Assembly: GCA_029261135.1 (NCBI GenBank)
Contig: JAJDBX010000009.1
Span: forward strand, 1 to 64,000
Reading direction: 5' to 3'
DNA from: Nitrospirota bacterium
GTDB lineage: Bacteria; Nitrospirota; Nitrospiria; SBBL01; JAADHI01
DNA: 64,000 nucleotides
In this document: piece after piece, positions 1-5,380 of the stretch
Numbering within the stretch: position 1 is the first letter of the stretch
How the letters are laid out: every line of letters begins with the position of its first letter
The notes under the pieces: model-generated
Databases searched by the model: none
The model's input: only the letters and a program-made list of their open reading frames with translations
What the model was told of the DNA's origin: nothing
Translations under genes and position numbers: made by a program

Positions 1-52
1 ATGTGTATCTACACCAAGAATAACCTCGTGTTTCAAGGATTGTTTTTTCATT
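1..52 (-). CDS. IS110-family transposase, N-terminal fragment (runs off window)
   Basis: Reading leftwards from an ATG at 52, the first 17 codons give MKKQSLKHEVILGVDTH and then the window ends. The GVDTH signature with its Asp is how IS110/IS1111 transposases begin; that Asp is the first carboxylate of their RuvC-like DEDD site. The family inserts circular intermediates at specific sites. Only the start is visible, so subgroup and intactness cannot be judged. The reading frame is also open upstream through the whole left end into the interrupted IS3 orfB, so the ATG at 52 is chosen from the family's usual N-terminus rather than from an upstream stop codon. Confidence 0.72.
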
Positions 53-267
53 TGTAAAGTCCTCTGAGAGTCTTTGGATGCATCTCCGATTGCATTGCAG
101 GACAGGACACTCAGGTTGCAGTACAAAGCTCCTATTAGGTCACGGACAATGCCCCCGGTGATACTCGGGAAACGCTGGTATCCAACCGACAGGTCAACGC
201 AAAGGCAGCTTCGCCAATCCCAGCACGGGTCAGGTTGGACCAACGTTCGATAGCATTTTAACTGAGT
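53..267 (-). ncRNA. Candidate IS110 left end encoding a bridge RNA
   Basis: About 215 bases separate the broken IS3 orfB (conserved protein match ends near 268) from the IS110 start codon at 52. IS110-type elements carry a non-coding left end here that is transcribed as the bridge RNA guiding target and donor choice. Seen in the sequence: a TAAAAT box at 260-255, close to the element edge, where the left-end -10 box lies in elements whose promoter forms on circularisation; and a hairpin with arms GATAC (182-178) and GTATC (164-160) around a 13-base loop. The hexamer GGATAC at 183-178 also occurs in the flanking target at 271-266, which would suit a target guide. The assignment rests on position and these short matches only; no covariance was tested. 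Confidence 0.45.
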
Positions 268-968
268 ATCCCAACAATTTCCCTTACGACTCATGCTGGG
301 AACCATTTTGTGGATCTTGAGCATCTTCACAAAATCATTGCTGCAATACTGGCTTCCCCGATCTGAATGAAAAATCAAACCAGGTGGTGGACGACGATGC
401 CAGACTCCCATTTGTAAGGCATCCATAACCAATTGCTTGTTGATCCGATTGCTCATGGACCAACCCACAATTTTTCGATGGAATAAATCCAGAATAACGG
501 CAAGATACAACCAGCCTTCGGAGGTCCAGACGTATGTGATGTCTGAAACCCAAACCCGGTCAGGCACAGCGACTTTGAAATTACGGTCTAGTAAATTCTC
601 GGCAATTGGCAGATTATGTTTACTGTCTGTCGTCACCTTGAACTTCTTTCTTCGTCGAACAGAGATCCCAGCCAAATTCATCAGCGTTCGTGCTCTGTAG
701 CGACCACAGGGAGTGCCACTTGCTGCAATTTCTTCTGAAATACGACGAGCCCCATAAGTATCTCTTGATTCCTTAGATGCCCTTTTTACGATTGGAATGA
801 GGTTTTCGTTCTCTATCTGCCGAGGCGATTTTTCTCGTTTCCGCCACGAATAATAACCACTTTGGCTCACTCGCATCACTTGACACAACAGGACAATTGT
901 ATAGACCTTCTTCTCGGTATCAATAAATTGATATCTCAGTCCGTTTCTTTCGCGAAGAAGGTTGCCGC
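268..968 (-). pseudogene. IS3-family transposase orfB (rve integrase), broken by IS110
   Basis: Translation in the frame reached after a -1 shift from orfA gives a typical IS3 OrfB: an HTH_21-like region (SQSGYYSWRKRE, then TYGARRISEE), then the DDE integrase core with VWVSDITYVWT (first Asp), LIFHSDRGSQY (second Asp) and MSRKGNCWD just before the catalytic Glu. The conserved sequence stops at GNCWD near 270, where AESFF with the third catalytic residue would be expected. The frame then runs without a stop through the IS110 left end. The protein therefore lacks its catalytic Glu and should be inactive. It has no listed start of its own because IS3 OrfAB is normally made by frameshifting. Confidence 0.85.
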
Positions 969-1232
969 CTTTTTTAATATTTCGCGCTCCAACTTCAAAC
1001 GCTTGTTTTCTTTGCGGAGTTGTTTTAATTCGGTCTGCATATTCAGCAGGCTGCGCGACTCAGACACACCACCTTCACTCTTTTCCATCTCCCGCTTCCA
1101 GCGGCCCAGGAGATTCGGATTGACGCCCAAATTCCGCGCTGCTTCTGATATCGCGTATCCCTGATCCTTTATTAATTTTACTGCTTCTTCTTTGAACTCC
1201 TTTGTGTGATTCCGTCTTTGCTTATTACTCAT
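936..1232 (-). CDS. IS3-family transposase orfA (HTH_Tnp_1)
   Basis: A 98-residue protein starting MSNKQRRNHTKEFKEEAV. It has the helix-turn-helix pattern of IS3/IS911 OrfA (AISEAARNLGVNPNLLGRW) followed by a charged, probably coiled-coil region rich in Lys/Glu (ELKQLRKENKRLKLEREIL) that serves as the multimerisation zipper. The start at 1232 is preferred over an upstream TTG/ATG because AGGAGG lies 7 bases before it. OrfA binds the element's terminal repeats and, when fused to OrfB by frameshifting, forms the transposase. OrfA is intact here while OrfB is not, so it can only act as a DNA-binding regulator. Confidence 0.88.
   Translation of the reverse strand: MSNKQRRNHTKEFKEEAVKLIKDQGYAISEAARNLGVNPNLLGRWKREMEKSEGGVSESRSLLNMQTELKQLRKENKRLKLEREILKKAATFFAKETD
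969..975 (-). other. Programmed -1 frameshift heptamer of IS3 orfA/orfB
   Basis: The minus strand reads A AAA AAG across codons 86-88 of orfA, the canonical IS3-family slippery heptamer. A -1 slip here leaves the orfA frame 33 bases before its TGA at 938-936 and enters the orfB frame (GGC GGC AAC CTT), which is open from that point. This explains why orfB has no separate start. Confidence 0.75.
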
Positions 1233-1279: not shown

Positions 1280-1537
1280 CTAAAACCCTAGCACCTCGCA
1301 GCAATCGATTTTAGGAAAGAATGTCAATTGGACGGCGGTAAAACGCATTGAGATATCTTTCTTCATGTTTTCTTTTTGGCTGTTCTTTCGATAATATGGT
1401 GATGCAAGTGATATTGATCTAACTGATAGGACAGAACAATGTCGATGAACAACCCGCCACATCTCGGAAGAAGGTAGAGACTATCTTGCCAGTGTACGCC
1501 GTTCATGCCAAACGTTATTTTACTAAAGGCCGTATCA
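1280..1537. other. Intergenic stretch, no gene recognised
   Basis: Short open frames exist on both strands but none has a ribosome binding site or a recognisable product. Pairs such as ATGAAC (1444-1449) and GTTCAT (1501-1506) are complementary but do not follow the attC/attI pattern, so the 5' edge of the putative cassette downstream is not defined. Confidence 0.4.
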
Positions 1538-2500
1538 ATGAGTAAATCAAAAGACTATTTTATTTCCTTCAGTGAGATAGCCAGTACTTTAGGAATCCTA
1601 GAGGGTGATTTCCTGGAATGGGTGAAAGAAGACAACCCAGAAATAGGCAAAGACCATATAGGAAGAAAAGCAACTAAAAGGTCTTATTTAGAGAAGTGTG
1701 CGCTTAAAAAAGATTATTTATTTAAATTGGAAAAATCATTCCACGCTGAAAATCTAGAAATTGAAAGTGAGTCGGAGGACAAAATTCGATTCTATCTAAT
1801 AGAGCGCTCAAGGCTTATTGGTCTATATGCCATATTTATTGAAGATTTGATTAAGCTACATAAAGAATATAAAAAAGTTGCTGAGTTTCATGGAATAGAA
1901 AGTCCTGTTTTAGCTGCATATTTATTGTTTTCAAAGGCTATATCCGTATTGTCTTGCCTTTGTGAAAACCTAAAGAAAGGATATTGGTATGTTGGTTCAA
2001 TGCTGCGTGAAATTGATGAAACACTAGATGTAGCGTTATATTTCATTTTGAGTAGTGAAGGAGATTCTGGAAAATTGGATTTAAAAAAATGGTTTCGCCT
2101 TGGTTCGTCTCCAAGTCATTTTAAGTGTAGAGAGATAATTTCCGAATGGCATTCACAACTCAACCCTTCAATTAATGAAGAAAATCACAGGGTATTAATG
2201 AGTAGTCTTTATGGGAAAAAATCAAAATTTACTCATCCAACATTTCAGTCAATAAGAGATAGTAGTGTGATGTCATATTCTAATGGAGAGATAGTCATAA
2301 AAAATCTATGTTATGGGAGTTCGTCCAGGCAAAAATATTTATGGGAACTTACGCATTTTACTAAATCTAGCATCTGGACATGTTTTCAACGGTTTATGCT
2401 GATTTTTATCCATTCAATGCCACTTAATCAAAAAGATGTAGACTATTTGTTAGAGTACGACAAAAAATTTATCGCCTTGGATAGCAGTTGGGAATGGTAA
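1538..2500 (+). CDS. Hypothetical protein of a putative gene cassette
   Basis: A 320-residue soluble protein (331 if started at 1505) that I do not recognise. No signal peptide or membrane segment is evident. It starts MSKSKDYFISFSEIASTLGI, where SFSEIASTLGILEGDFLEW could be a DNA-binding or excisionase-like helix pair. The rest is helical and charged, with an aromatic-rich C-terminus (SSIWTCFQRFMLIFIHSM, DSSWEW). The start at 1538 has AAAGG about 10 bases upstream; 1505 has nothing better. Codon use is much more AT-rich than mutS next door, and the gene is followed within a few bases by an attC-like palindrome. Both suggest horizontal acquisition, perhaps as an integron cassette. Confidence 0.6.
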   Translation: MSKSKDYFISFSEIASTLGILEGDFLEWVKEDNPEIGKDHIGRKATKRSYLEKCALKKDYLFKLEKSFHAENLEIESESEDKIRFYLIERSRLIGLYAIFIEDLIKLHKEYKKVAEFHGIESPVLAAYLLFSKAISVLSCLCENLKKGYWYVGSMLREIDETLDVALYFILSSEGDSGKLDLKKWFRLGSSPSHFKCREIISEWHSQLNPSINEENHRVLMSSLYGKKSKFTHPTFQSIRDSSVMSYSNGEIVIKNLCYGSSSRQKYLWELTHFTKSSIWTCFQRFMLIFIHSMPLNQKDVDYLLEYDKKFIALDSSWEW

Positions 2501-2659: not shown

Positions 2660-5380
2660 TTAAGTTTCAGAATCTTCCGATTTGATATCGCTGTCTTTTT
2701 TTAATTGTTCTGAAAGATCAATCAGTTTTTTTAAGGCTTGCATCGGGGTGAGGTTCATCGGGTCGATATTTCTCAGCGCATCGATGACGGGATGTTCAAG
2801 CACTTGGAGTTCCGGTAAGGGGTCTTGATCTTCAGGAGTGGATGCTGAAAAAAGAGAACCCTGATCGGAAAAATTTTCAATGGAGTCGGCTGAAAAATGG
2901 GCGTGAAGGGGGGTCCCGATGGTTTTATCATCTAATTTTTTGAGAACGTCTTTTGCCCTGTTGATGATCTCGGCAGGTAGCCCTGCCAGTCGTCCCACTT
3001 GAATGCCGTAGCTTTTATCTGAACCGCCTTCGACCATTTTTCTCAAAAAGATGATCTCATCGTTCCATTCTCGAACCAACACATGATAGTTTCGAATCCC
3101 CGGATAAATCATCGAAAGCCCGGTCAGTTCATGATAATGTGTCGCAAAAAGCGTGCGGGCTTTGAGTGTAGTGTGGACATATTCCGCAATGGCCCAGGCG
3201 ATGCTGATGCCATCGAAGGTGCTGGTGCCGCGACCAATTTCATCCAACAAGATCAAACTTTTTTCAGTCGCGTGGCTTAAAATCTGAGACATTTCCGTCA
3301 TCTCGACCATGAAGGTGCTCATGCCTTCATTCAGGGCATCCTGCGCGCCGACGCGGGTGAAAATCTGATCGCAAACCCCGATGGTGGCTTCGCGTGCAGG
3401 CACATAACTGCCCATCTGTGCCATGAGCACGATGAGGGCGATCTGCCGCATATAGGTGGATTTTCCGGCCATGTTCGGCCCGGTCAAAATAAGCAATTGT
3501 TTAGAGGGCGGGCTGATCATGGCGTCATTGGGGATAAAGCCCGCTTTCCCACCTGAAACCATCCCGGCTTCCAAGACCGGATGCCGACCTTCGGTAATTT
3601 GAATACTCATGTTTTCATTCACTTCGGGTCGGCAGTAATTGTTGTTGTGGGCAACTTCGGCCAAGGTCGATAGAAAATCGATGAGGGCGATTTTTTTTGC
3701 CATGGTTTGAACGCGCGCGGTTTCTAAAGAAAGGTCATCACGAATTTCCTCAAAGGCGCGGGCTTCGAGCGCCATAATCGCATCTTTTGCCCCCGTGAGT
3801 TTTTCTTCCAGGGTTTTCAATTCCAGGGTCATATAACGTTCGGCATTGGCGAGTGTCTGCTTGCGGATAAAGTGTTCAGGCACTTTTGGTGAATGGGTTT
3901 TGCTGACCTCAATATAGTAACCGTGGACTTGGTTGTAGCGCACCTTGAGCGAGTCAATCCCGGTGTCTTGCCGTTCCTTTTTTTCCATCTCCGTGAGCAT
4001 GGCGCGGCCTTCTTTTTGGAAATGTCGCAATTCATCCAATTCAGCAAGGTAACCGGGTTTGATCACGCCCCCGTCTTTGAGGGAAAAGGGCGGCTCCGGC
4101 ACGATAGCCTGATCAATGAGTTGATAAACGGATTCGATATTGTCCCAGCTTCCCAGGAGTGTCGAGATAATTTCGGGGTGGAGCGTCGCGTCCGTCGCAT
4201 CCTCAACATGAGAAAGGGTTCGCTGAATTTCCGGCAGAAGCGCGATGGATTCTTTCAGGGCGATCATGTCGCGCGGTTGTGACGCTCTGAGGCTGATGCG
4301 GCCGATCAAACGTTCAATATCTGCAATAAGTTTGAGTCGATCTCGAAGCCCTTTTCTTAAAGCAAGATGATCATAAAAAAAACTCACCCCTTCCTGTCTG
4401 TGATGAATTTCTTTTGCATCCAGTAATGGCCGAAGAATCGATTCTTTGAGTAGCCGGCCGCCCATCGCCGTGACCGTGTGGTCAAGTAAGTGAAAAAGAG
4501 TGCCGCCCTTTTGATCTCGGTAAAGGGGAATGAGATCCAGGTGCTTTAAGGCCAGAGGATGAATGCGCATGAGCCCACGGCTGGGAATGGGCCTTACGCG
4601 CGTGATGTTGCCGAGGGCTTTTTTTTGTGTCTCTTGAAGATGGGTCAAAAGTGCCCCGGCCGCCATTAGGGAAAAGTCGCCACCCCCAAAAGCCGCCGTT
4701 GAATGGACTTTAAAATGCGTTTTCAAAACCAATTCCGCTTCTTCCTGTACAAAGAAGGAGGAGGGTACAAATCGAATCGGCCATTGATCGTTGAGCGGAC
4801 CCAATGGCCCTTCATTTTTTTTATAACGGGATGAGAGCATGATTTCTTTGGGTGAAATTTTTAGGAGTTCTGCCTCAACGACTGCCCAATGGCCATCTGT
4901 GGCGAGCATACGAAAATCACCGGTCGAAAGATCAATACAAGCCAGTCCGATCTGTTTGGCGTCTTTAAGACCCGCGTTCGATTTCCAAATCAGTGCCGCG
5001 AGATAATTGTGTTCTTTTTCTGTAAGCAGTTCTGGTTCGATGACCGTTCCGGGGGTAATGACACGAACGACTTCCCGCCGCACGATGCCTTTTCCCGGAC
5101 TCGCCTCCTCGACTTGTTCGCATATGGCAACCGATTCTCCCGCACGGATCATTCGGGCAATATAACCGGAGGCTGCATGATAGGGGATGCCACAGAGCGG
5201 GATGGGGTTAAGATTTTTTTTGTCGCGGGAGGTCAGGGTGATTTGTAAAATTTTAGAGGCTTTAATGGCATCGTCATAAAACATTTCATAAAAGTCGCCC
5301 ACACGAAAAAAAAGAATGGTCTCTGGATGTTCTTCCTTGATGGCCAGAAATTGTTTCATGAGAGGTGTGGTCGCTTGCAT
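2660..5380 (-). CDS. mutS: DNA mismatch repair protein MutS
   Basis: 906 residues, slightly longer than E. coli MutS (853). MutS recognises mispairs and small loops and recruits MutL. Seen here: the mismatch-reading F-Y-E motif at residues 30-32 (RVGDFYEMF), the connector and lever domains, then the ATPase with Walker A GPNMAGKST near residue 633, the Walker B/signature region LLDEIGRGTSTFDG near 710, FATHYHELT, and the helix-turn-helix dimerisation tail. The C-terminal tail (MQALKKLIDLSEQLKK) resembles the tetramerisation end. AGGAAG lies upstream of the ATG. It stands alone, with a 365-base gap on its 5' side, and its codon use matches the chromosomal backbone rather than the island to the left. 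Confidence 0.98.
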   Translation of the reverse strand: MQATTPLMKQFLAIKEEHPETILFFRVGDFYEMFYDDAIKASKILQITLTSRDKKNLNPIPLCGIPYHAASGYIARMIRAGESVAICEQVEEASPGKGIVRREVVRVITPGTVIEPELLTEKEHNYLAALIWKSNAGLKDAKQIGLACIDLSTGDFRMLATDGHWAVVEAELLKISPKEIMLSSRYKKNEGPLGPLNDQWPIRFVPSSFFVQEEAELVLKTHFKVHSTAAFGGGDFSLMAAGALLTHLQETQKKALGNITRVRPIPSRGLMRIHPLALKHLDLIPLYRDQKGGTLFHLLDHTVTAMGGRLLKESILRPLLDAKEIHHRQEGVSFFYDHLALRKGLRDRLKLIADIERLIGRISLRASQPRDMIALKESIALLPEIQRTLSHVEDATDATLHPEIISTLLGSWDNIESVYQLIDQAIVPEPPFSLKDGGVIKPGYLAELDELRHFQKEGRAMLTEMEKKERQDTGIDSLKVRYNQVHGYYIEVSKTHSPKVPEHFIRKQTLANAERYMTLELKTLEEKLTGAKDAIMALEARAFEEIRDDLSLETARVQTMAKKIALIDFLSTLAEVAHNNNYCRPEVNENMSIQITEGRHPVLEAGMVSGGKAGFIPNDAMISPPSKQLLILTGPNMAGKSTYMRQIALIVLMAQMGSYVPAREATIGVCDQIFTRVGAQDALNEGMSTFMVEMTEMSQILSHATEKSLILLDEIGRGTSTFDGISIAWAIAEYVHTTLKARTLFATHYHELTGLSMIYPGIRNYHVLVREWNDEIIFLRKMVEGGSDKSYGIQVGRLAGLPAEIINRAKDVLKKLDDKTIGTPLHAHFSADSIENFSDQGSLFSASTPEDQDPLPELQVLEHPVIDALRNIDPMNLTPMQALKKLIDLSEQLKKDSDIKSEDSET

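What the first reader, a model, noticed from the sequence alone, without database searches (positions are those of the whole stretch)
53..272. Candidate bridge RNA in an IS110 left end nested in an IS3 element
The IS110 start codon is preceded by about 215 bases of non-conserved sequence up to the IS3 break. It has a TAAAAT box close to the element edge and a GATAC/GTATC hairpin, and the hexamer GGATAC of this hairpin also occurs in the target flank at 271-266. Bridge RNAs guide IS110 recombinases to target and donor, so a target match inside the RNA is expected.
Basis: partly seen in the sequence, partly recalled or inferred. Interest (0 to 1): 0.6.

Follow-up and report, generated by a model that had tools for sequence, protein, structure and literature searches.

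The report
Bridge RNA aiming at IS3 transposases
The window's left edge holds one end of a jumping gene (IS110 type) that carries a guide RNA for a conserved stretch of another jumping gene's transposase (IS3 type), and relatives in several bacterial phyla sit at that same spot; the RNA-guided mechanism is known, but this aiming point appears not to have been described.

Summary
The detailed guide assignment is wrong: the GATAC/GTATC hairpin is not conserved, and the GGATAC match to the flank is accidental. A covariance model built from 35 relatives WITHOUT the window finds the RNA at window 254-87(-) with 173 bits, E about 2e-44. Its helices covary strongly. The guides are: LTG TGCTGGGAT (225-217), RTG GCGTTG (200-195), LDG ATAGGAGC (135-128), RDG CCTGAGTGTC (115-106). 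They match IS3 TGYTGGGA|YA|AYGC and the element's own ends. 45 of 51 relatives (Proteobacteria, plus Acidobacteriota and Spirochaetota MAGs) sit in IS3 transposase genes at codons GNCWD|N(A/S), five codons before the catalytic Glu, always in the same orientation. Related IS110s with other targets carry other, matching guides (0/20000 permutations). ISEc21, the experimentally studied IS110 known to hit IS3 (PMC11187229), is only 45% identical and aims at a different IS3 motif, HSD|QGSQY. So this is a bridge-RNA element of known kind with a different programme on the same victim gene. The rest of the element is off the contig, and no transcript or transposition was tested.

The parts
1..53 (-). 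5' end of the IS110 recombinase gene (first 17 codons; gene runs off the contig end)
   Evidence: full-length homologue P0001 (353 aa) from G003:C45 matches NF033542 IS110 family RNA-guided transposase, E 2.4e-54
54..266 (-). IS110 non-coding left end (LE), CTCAG... to the base before the start codon
   Evidence: boundary fixed by 51 relatives
267..268 (-). core dinucleotide TA at the left junction (target-derived; donor core is CA)
   Evidence: 27 T and 24 C as first core base on the left, CA in 47 of 47 right junctions
87..254 (-). bridge RNA (extent of the model match; true 5' and 3' ends not mapped)
   Evidence: model R1, built without the window: 173.3 bits, E 2.1e-44, the only hit in 64 kb and in the genome
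170..248 (-). target-binding stem-loop: GAACGTTGG-CCAACC ... GGTTGG-ATACCAGCGTTT
   Evidence: helices 1-3 with changes on both sides
217..225 (-). left target guide (LTG) TGCTGGGAT
   Evidence: 49 of 51 relatives match their left flank at 7 or more of 8 bases
195..200 (-). right target guide (RTG) GCGTTG, pairs with CAAYGC
   Evidence: covaries with the right flank: Fisher 6.5e-6 at one position, permutation 0/20000 (52/20000 after removing duplicates)
154..169 (-). small hairpin CCCG-AGTATCAC-CGGG between the two loops
92..152 (-). donor-binding stem-loop: GCATTG (152-147) pairs with CAATGC (97-92)
   Evidence: helix 5 with 7 of 8 pairs changing on both sides in relatives
128..135 (-). left donor guide (LDG) ATAGGAGC, same as the element's right end ATAGGAGCGT|CA
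   Evidence: in ISEc21 both guide and end read AGAAGGGC
106..115 (-). right donor guide (RDG) CCTGAGTGTC, complement of GACACTCAGG at the left end
   Evidence: covaries with the left end, permutation 0/20000 (1/20000 after removing duplicates)
255..260 (-). TAAAAT, candidate -10 box; with TTGACA of the right end gives spacing 17 in the joined circle
   Evidence: right end taken from L031; for the known junction promoter
269..276 (-). left half of the target, TGTTGGGA, in IS3 orfB codons for N-C-W-D
   Evidence: empty site in the same genome
268..888 (-). IS3 orfB, 5' part, interrupted five codons before the catalytic Glu
   Evidence: remainder NAVAESFFGSLKTER... follows the IS110 right end in L031
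936..1304 (-). IS3 orfA; AAAAAAG at 975-969 is a probable -1 frameshift site joining orfA and orfB
   Evidence: frameshift inferred from sequence

Best explanation
Window 266-1(-) is the left part of an IS110-family element. Its left end encodes a bridge RNA (about 254-87) with two loops. The first loop pairs with the target: LTG TGCUGGGAU reads as the left target strand and RTG GCGUUG complements the right target CA-AYGC. The second pairs with the element's own joined ends: LDG AUAGGAGC and RDG CCUGAGUGUC. On excision, a circle would join right end TTGACATAGGAGCGT to left end CACTCAGTTAAAAT. That creates a TTGACA-17-TAAAAT promoter which would transcribe the RNA and then the recombinase. The recombinase would insert the circle at TGYTGGGA|YA|AYGC, the codons GNCWD|N(A/S) of IS3-family transposases. 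This separates the catalytic Glu (D-35-E) from the rest of the IS3 enzyme, as seen here. Shown: element and boundary, RNA structure by covariation, guide matches, repeated insertion at this IS3 site. Inferred: transcription, circle, activity, and that L031 or a close copy is the missing rest of the window's element.
For: Independent covariance model hits 254-87(-), E 2e-44. Covariation: 23 pairs with changes on both sides against 13.8 in shuffles, 0/500. LTG matches the left flank in 49/51; RTG and RDG covary with right target and left end. 45/51 relatives are in IS3 at the same codon boundary and in the same orientation. Related IS110s with other targets match their own and not others' flanks, 0/20000. 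The clade is supported in a tree with Nitrospirota L044 inside. An empty IS3 site in the same genome is TGCTGGGATAATGC. A junction promoter is recovered across the clade. The mechanism is established experimentally for IS621 (PMC11208160) and ISEc21 (PMC11187229).
Against: The window holds only 17 codons of the recombinase. The continuation is ambiguous because two G003 contigs share the 141-base overlap, and one of them (L006/L088) carries a copy cut at about codon 204. Folding energy of the window RNA alone is not unusual (z -0.8). The RTG pairs with the presumed target CAATGC through one G-U wobble, and the target core TA differs from the donor core CA. No Rfam family matches. No RNA or transposition data.
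Confidence: 0.94

Rival explanations
1. The conserved 200 bases are only a 5' untranslated region or regulatory leader of the recombinase, and the repeated IS3 location reflects one ancient composite that spread as a unit.
For: The region lies upstream of the gene and would be co-transcribed; the left end and IS3 flank were found collinear in many plasmids.
Against: The IS3 hosts are different subgroups with different sequences on both sides, and off-IS3 insertions L051, L052, L061 and L103 keep TG[CT]TGGGA. Guides covary with target and ends.
Confidence: 0.03
2. The element boundary is at window 141 and the rest (142-268) is other DNA.
For: Only window 1-141 matches the two G003 contigs.
Against: Both G003 contigs end exactly there, which is the signature of a k-mer overlap in a de Bruijn assembly; homologues in other phyla extend to 266.
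Confidence: 0.01
3. One reading: a GATAC/GTATC hairpin whose GGATAC finds the target.
For: The hexamer occurs in both places.
Against: The two halves belong to different helices and do not covary; GGATAC at 271-266 straddles the junction; relatives lack it.
Confidence: 0.01
4. A real but dead copy: the RNA and end are relics and the window's element is no longer mobile (compatible with the best explanation of what the sequence is, but not with present activity).
For: The contig holds only a fragment, and one of the two neighbouring copies is broken (L006/L088).
Against: All four guides, the -10 box and the reading frame are intact here, and L031 carries an intact 353-codon gene.
Confidence: 0.25

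Closest known systems
ISEc21 (IS110 family, E. coli; PMC11187229; NZ_LT903847, locus L140)
   Same: IS110 recombinase with upstream non-coding RNA; inserts into IS3-family transposase genes; same RNA scaffold (model R1 hits it, E 1.5e-6); junction promoter; by sequence it also has donor guides (LDG AGAAGGGC equals its right end).
   Different: 45% amino-acid identity. Target is HSD|QGSQY around the second catalytic Asp, about 30 codons upstream of the GNCWD|N site used here. Its published 74-nt seekRNA was described with target matches only.
IS621 and its bridge RNA (PMC11208160, PMC11208158)
   Same: Target loop followed by donor loop in the left end, LTG/RTG and LDG/RDG arrangement including the core, promoter formed by joined ends; the only solved structures that match P0001 are IS621 and ISCro4.
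   Different: IS621 core is CT and it targets REP elements; here the donor core is CA and the target is IS3 coding sequence. The IS621 5' stem-loop was not identified here.
IS1111-type elements (ISEc11, ISPa11, ISKpn4)
   Same: DEDD recombinase with a guide RNA.
   Different: RNA lies downstream of the gene and guide order is reversed (PMC11187229); here the RNA is upstream.

Membership tests
IS110 family element | DEDD (PF01548) and Transposase_20 (PF02371) recombinase | tested here: met
   For L031/P0001, both domains and NF033542. The window itself has only the first 17 codons, identical to P0001.
IS110 family element | Long non-coding left end upstream of the gene (IS110 type rather than IS1111 type) | tested here: met
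   213-215 nt in the window.
Bridge RNA / seekRNA | Conserved two-loop RNA structure in the non-coding end | tested here: met
   Covariation and independent model hit.
Bridge RNA / seekRNA | Target guides match both sides of the insertion site | tested here: met
   Left side directly in the window; right side from L031 and relatives.
Bridge RNA / seekRNA | Donor guides match the element's own joined ends | tested here: met
   Left end directly in the window; right end from L031; covariation in relatives.
Bridge RNA / seekRNA | RNA is transcribed and bound by the recombinase | not testable with these tools
   No RNA data.
ISEc21 group | Target at the codons around the second Asp of the IS3 DDE | tested here: not met
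   The window clade targets GNCWD|N(A/S); ISEc21 itself sits at HSD|QGSQY.
ISEc21 group | Close recombinase relationship | tested here: not met
   45% identity; ISEc21 falls outside the clade in the tree, although its branch is long.
IS3 family (host of the insertion) | orfA/orfB with HTH and rve DDE domains | tested here: met

The most novel reading that the evidence does not exclude
A clade of IS110 elements has been specialised, through its bridge RNA, as a parasite of IS3 transposons. It reads the codons GNCWD|N(A/S) next to the catalytic Glu, a second IS3 aiming point besides that of ISEc21, and its right guide drifts between Ala and Ser codon versions to follow the IS3 subgroup in its host. 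Each insertion inactivates the IS3 transposase, so the element finds a safe and ubiquitous landing site and also limits IS3.
Probability: 0.5. Interest if true: 0.6.

Novelty: new variant of a known kind. Interest (0 to 1): 0.45.

Why it matters
It shows that RNA-guided IS110 elements can be aimed at protein-coding motifs so conserved that one guide serves in several phyla, and that two related lineages (45% identical recombinases) aim at two different motifs of the same victim gene. That makes a natural data set for the guide-to-target code: tolerated wobbles, core mismatch (TA against CA), and switching between Ala and Ser codons. It also bears on a disagreement between two papers: the seekRNA paper described only target matches for ISEc21, whereas ISEc21 and this whole clade carry donor guides that match, and in this clade covary with, the element ends.

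Tried and rejected
(1) My first right-guide assignment, GGCATTGTCC (153-144), matches the target complement over 10 bases but is wrong: the alignment shows it is the donor-loop stem pairing with TGCAATGC, and it covaries with that partner, not with the target.
(2) Element edge at 141: rejected as an assembly overlap.
(3) Other IS110 genes of the genome (C6, C65) are different subfamilies and do not carry the missing part; R1 finds one copy in the genome.
(4) Rfam: no match.
(5) Single-sequence folding energy: not informative, z -0.8.
(6) I first assumed from the paper that this is ISEc21's own target; fetching ISEc21 showed a different IS3 motif.
(7) No ISEc21-named annotation among the E. coli matches listed for an enterobacterial member of the clade (35 of 5426 genomes match, 12 listed).
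(8) Fisher test of the RTG position opposite the target T/C: not significant, p 0.30.
(9) Citrobacter plasmid pCRE3-KPC fetched for ISEc21 but not needed once the E. coli record was found.

Full report
WHAT IS THERE. The window is bases 1-64000 of a 65,024-base contig (G000:C76) of a genome in the same genus as Nitrospirota MAG OFTM211, whose record title appears. On the minus strand an IS3 element (orfA 1304-936, orfB from 888; PF01527, HTH_21 and rve; NF033516) is broken after codons ...SMSRKGNCWD. It is followed by 213-215 non-coding bases and then the start of an IS110 recombinase at 53, which runs off the contig after 17 codons.

THE MISSING PART. Window 1-141 is identical to the ends of two contigs of G003. 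Both matches stop at exactly 141 bases because both contigs end there, and the two copies differ at the first base after the shared stretch; this is how contigs of a k=141 de Bruijn assembly overlap (inference). One copy (L031) has an intact 353-codon IS110 gene, a right end TTGACATAGGAGCGTC, and then AATGCCGTAGCAGAG..., coding NAVAESFFGSLKTER..., the expected rest of this IS3. An intact IS3 in the same genome (C8) reads GNCWDNAVAESFFGRLKTER with empty site TGCTGGGATAATGC. The other copy (L006/L088) is cut at about codon 204. Which one continues the window is not resolved.

RELATIVES AND TARGET. A scan of GTDB representative genomes with an alignment of three recombinases gave 80 loci. In 51 sequences (window included) the left end could be located; in 45 the left flank is IS3 orfB at the same codon boundary, GNCWD|N(A/S), in the same orientation, in different IS3 subgroups (counted by eye from the table, since the regular expression there missed L054, L079 and L115). 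Four others (L051, L052, L061, L103) are not in IS3 but still have TG[CT]TGGGA on the left; two (L057, L096) have altered left flanks. The motif lies between the second Asp and the Glu of the D-35-E catalytic triad, five codons before the Glu, so the insertion removes the Glu from the IS3 enzyme. In the recombinase tree all members fall in one clade (UFBoot 83 / SH-aLRT 100), with the Nitrospirota copy next to Methylococcaceae (96/90); three rows of that clade are labelled 'other' there only because their left end was cut off or not parsed (L044, L047, L059). The RNA was found in only 1 of 296 Nitrospirota genomes. Both facts suggest horizontal arrival.

THE RNA. The 35-row alignment A3, made without the window, gives 47 pairs; 95.8% of cells pair, 23 pairs change on both sides (shuffles 13.8, 0/500), and the covariation score is 0.270 against 0.04-0.08 when partners are slid. 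The structure was derived from the same alignment by RNAalifold, so the slide control leans in its favour; the counts of changes on both sides are the stronger part. The model finds the window at 254-87(-), 173 bits, E 2e-44, as the only hit in 64 kb and in the genome. It also finds distant relatives and ISEc21. The order is target stem-loop, small hairpin, donor stem-loop.

GUIDES. LTG: 32 of 51 match the left flank at 8/8 bases and 49 of 51 at 7 or more. RTG: own pairing 5.23 of 6 against 4.99 for permuted partners, 0/20000; after removing duplicate combinations 52/20000; one position alone gives Fisher 6.5e-6. Example: L081 has RTG GAGTTG and target CAACTC, where most have GC[AG]TTG and CAAYGC. 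RDG: own 4.98 against 4.65, 0/20000; without duplicates 1/20000 (LE ACTCAG with CCTGAGT, ACTGAG with CTTCAGT, ATAGAT with CATCTGT, TCTCAG with CGAGAGT). These permutations ignore relatedness among sequences. Stronger is the set of 13 relatives with other targets: the best match of a 9-base left flank in the own target loop averages 7.6 against 6.1 in others' loops, 0/20000; for example L095 flank TGCTCTGA with guide TGCTCTGA and right flank ATCCGGC with guide GCCGGAT. Left boundaries in that test were set by hand.

CROSSOVER AND PROMOTER. The first core base on the left is T in 27 and C in 24 (target-derived), while right junctions all read CA (47/47). The retained crossover therefore lies after the first core base, and a target core of TA is tolerated against donor CA (inference). 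Joining right end and left end gives TTGACA-17-TAAAAT for the window and similar boxes across the clade (mean 4.3 of 6 matches to TATAAT; spacing was allowed to vary from 16 to 19, so part of this is selection). Such junction promoters are known (PMC11208160; PMC11187229).

COMPARISON WITH THE KNOWN. ISEc21 was shown experimentally to be RNA-guided and to target certain IS3 elements at the codons around the second Asp (PMC11187229). I fetched ISEc21 itself (L140). It is 45% identical to P0001 and is inserted at CATAGCGACAG|...|TCCAGGGAAGCCAGTAT, that is HSD|QGSQY. So the window's clade uses a different aiming point on the same gene. ISEc21 also carries donor-guide-like segments: AGAAGGGC in the RNA region and AGAAGGGC at its right end, CGTTACTGTC against GACAGTAA at the left junction (by eye). 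The full-text searches I ran found no description of an IS110 group at GNCWD|N. The library lacks most subscription papers, the supplements and ISfinder were not readable, and large IS110 surveys may list such elements without comment. Novelty is therefore claimed only for the aiming point and its breadth.

VERDICT. The finding is right in kind, wrong in its guide details, and belongs to a known mechanism with a new target programme.

Noticed in passing
window 1-141: Exactly 141 bases shared with two contig ends of another MAG (G003): an assembly k-mer overlap, so anything inferred from identity there is not independent evidence.
   Followed up: yes
L006 / L088 (G003:C118): A second copy of the IS110 gene is cut at about codon 204 by other, unrelated-looking sequence.
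   Followed up: partly
L041 (Halomonas plasmid), L057, L096: Left junctions that contain right-end-like sequence (for example TGGGAGCGTCACTCAG), as if the element had landed beside, or recombined with, another copy's right end.
   Followed up: no
L140 (ISEc21) 1240-1300 and 2416-2435: ISEc21 carries segments that match its own two ends, although its published seekRNA was described with target matches only; bears on whether a donor loop is needed.
   Followed up: partly
L042 (E. coli IncHI2-type plasmid): A clade member with the same left end whose gene is broken lies directly next to a retron/PtuAB defence operon.
   Followed up: no
window 969-975 (-): AAAAAAG in IS3 orfA just before orfB, a probable -1 frameshift site.
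   Followed up: no
window 1505-2500 (+): 331-codon ORF between the IS3 element and mutS with no Pfam match.
   Followed up: partly
window 2660-5380 (-): Complete mutS gene (all five MutS domains) next to the nested insertion elements.
   Followed up: no
L122 (Modicisalibacter muralis): Looks like an ISEc21-type element: right end TTAGAAGGGCGTC followed by IS3 sequence GSQY...GNCYDNACAES.
   Followed up: no
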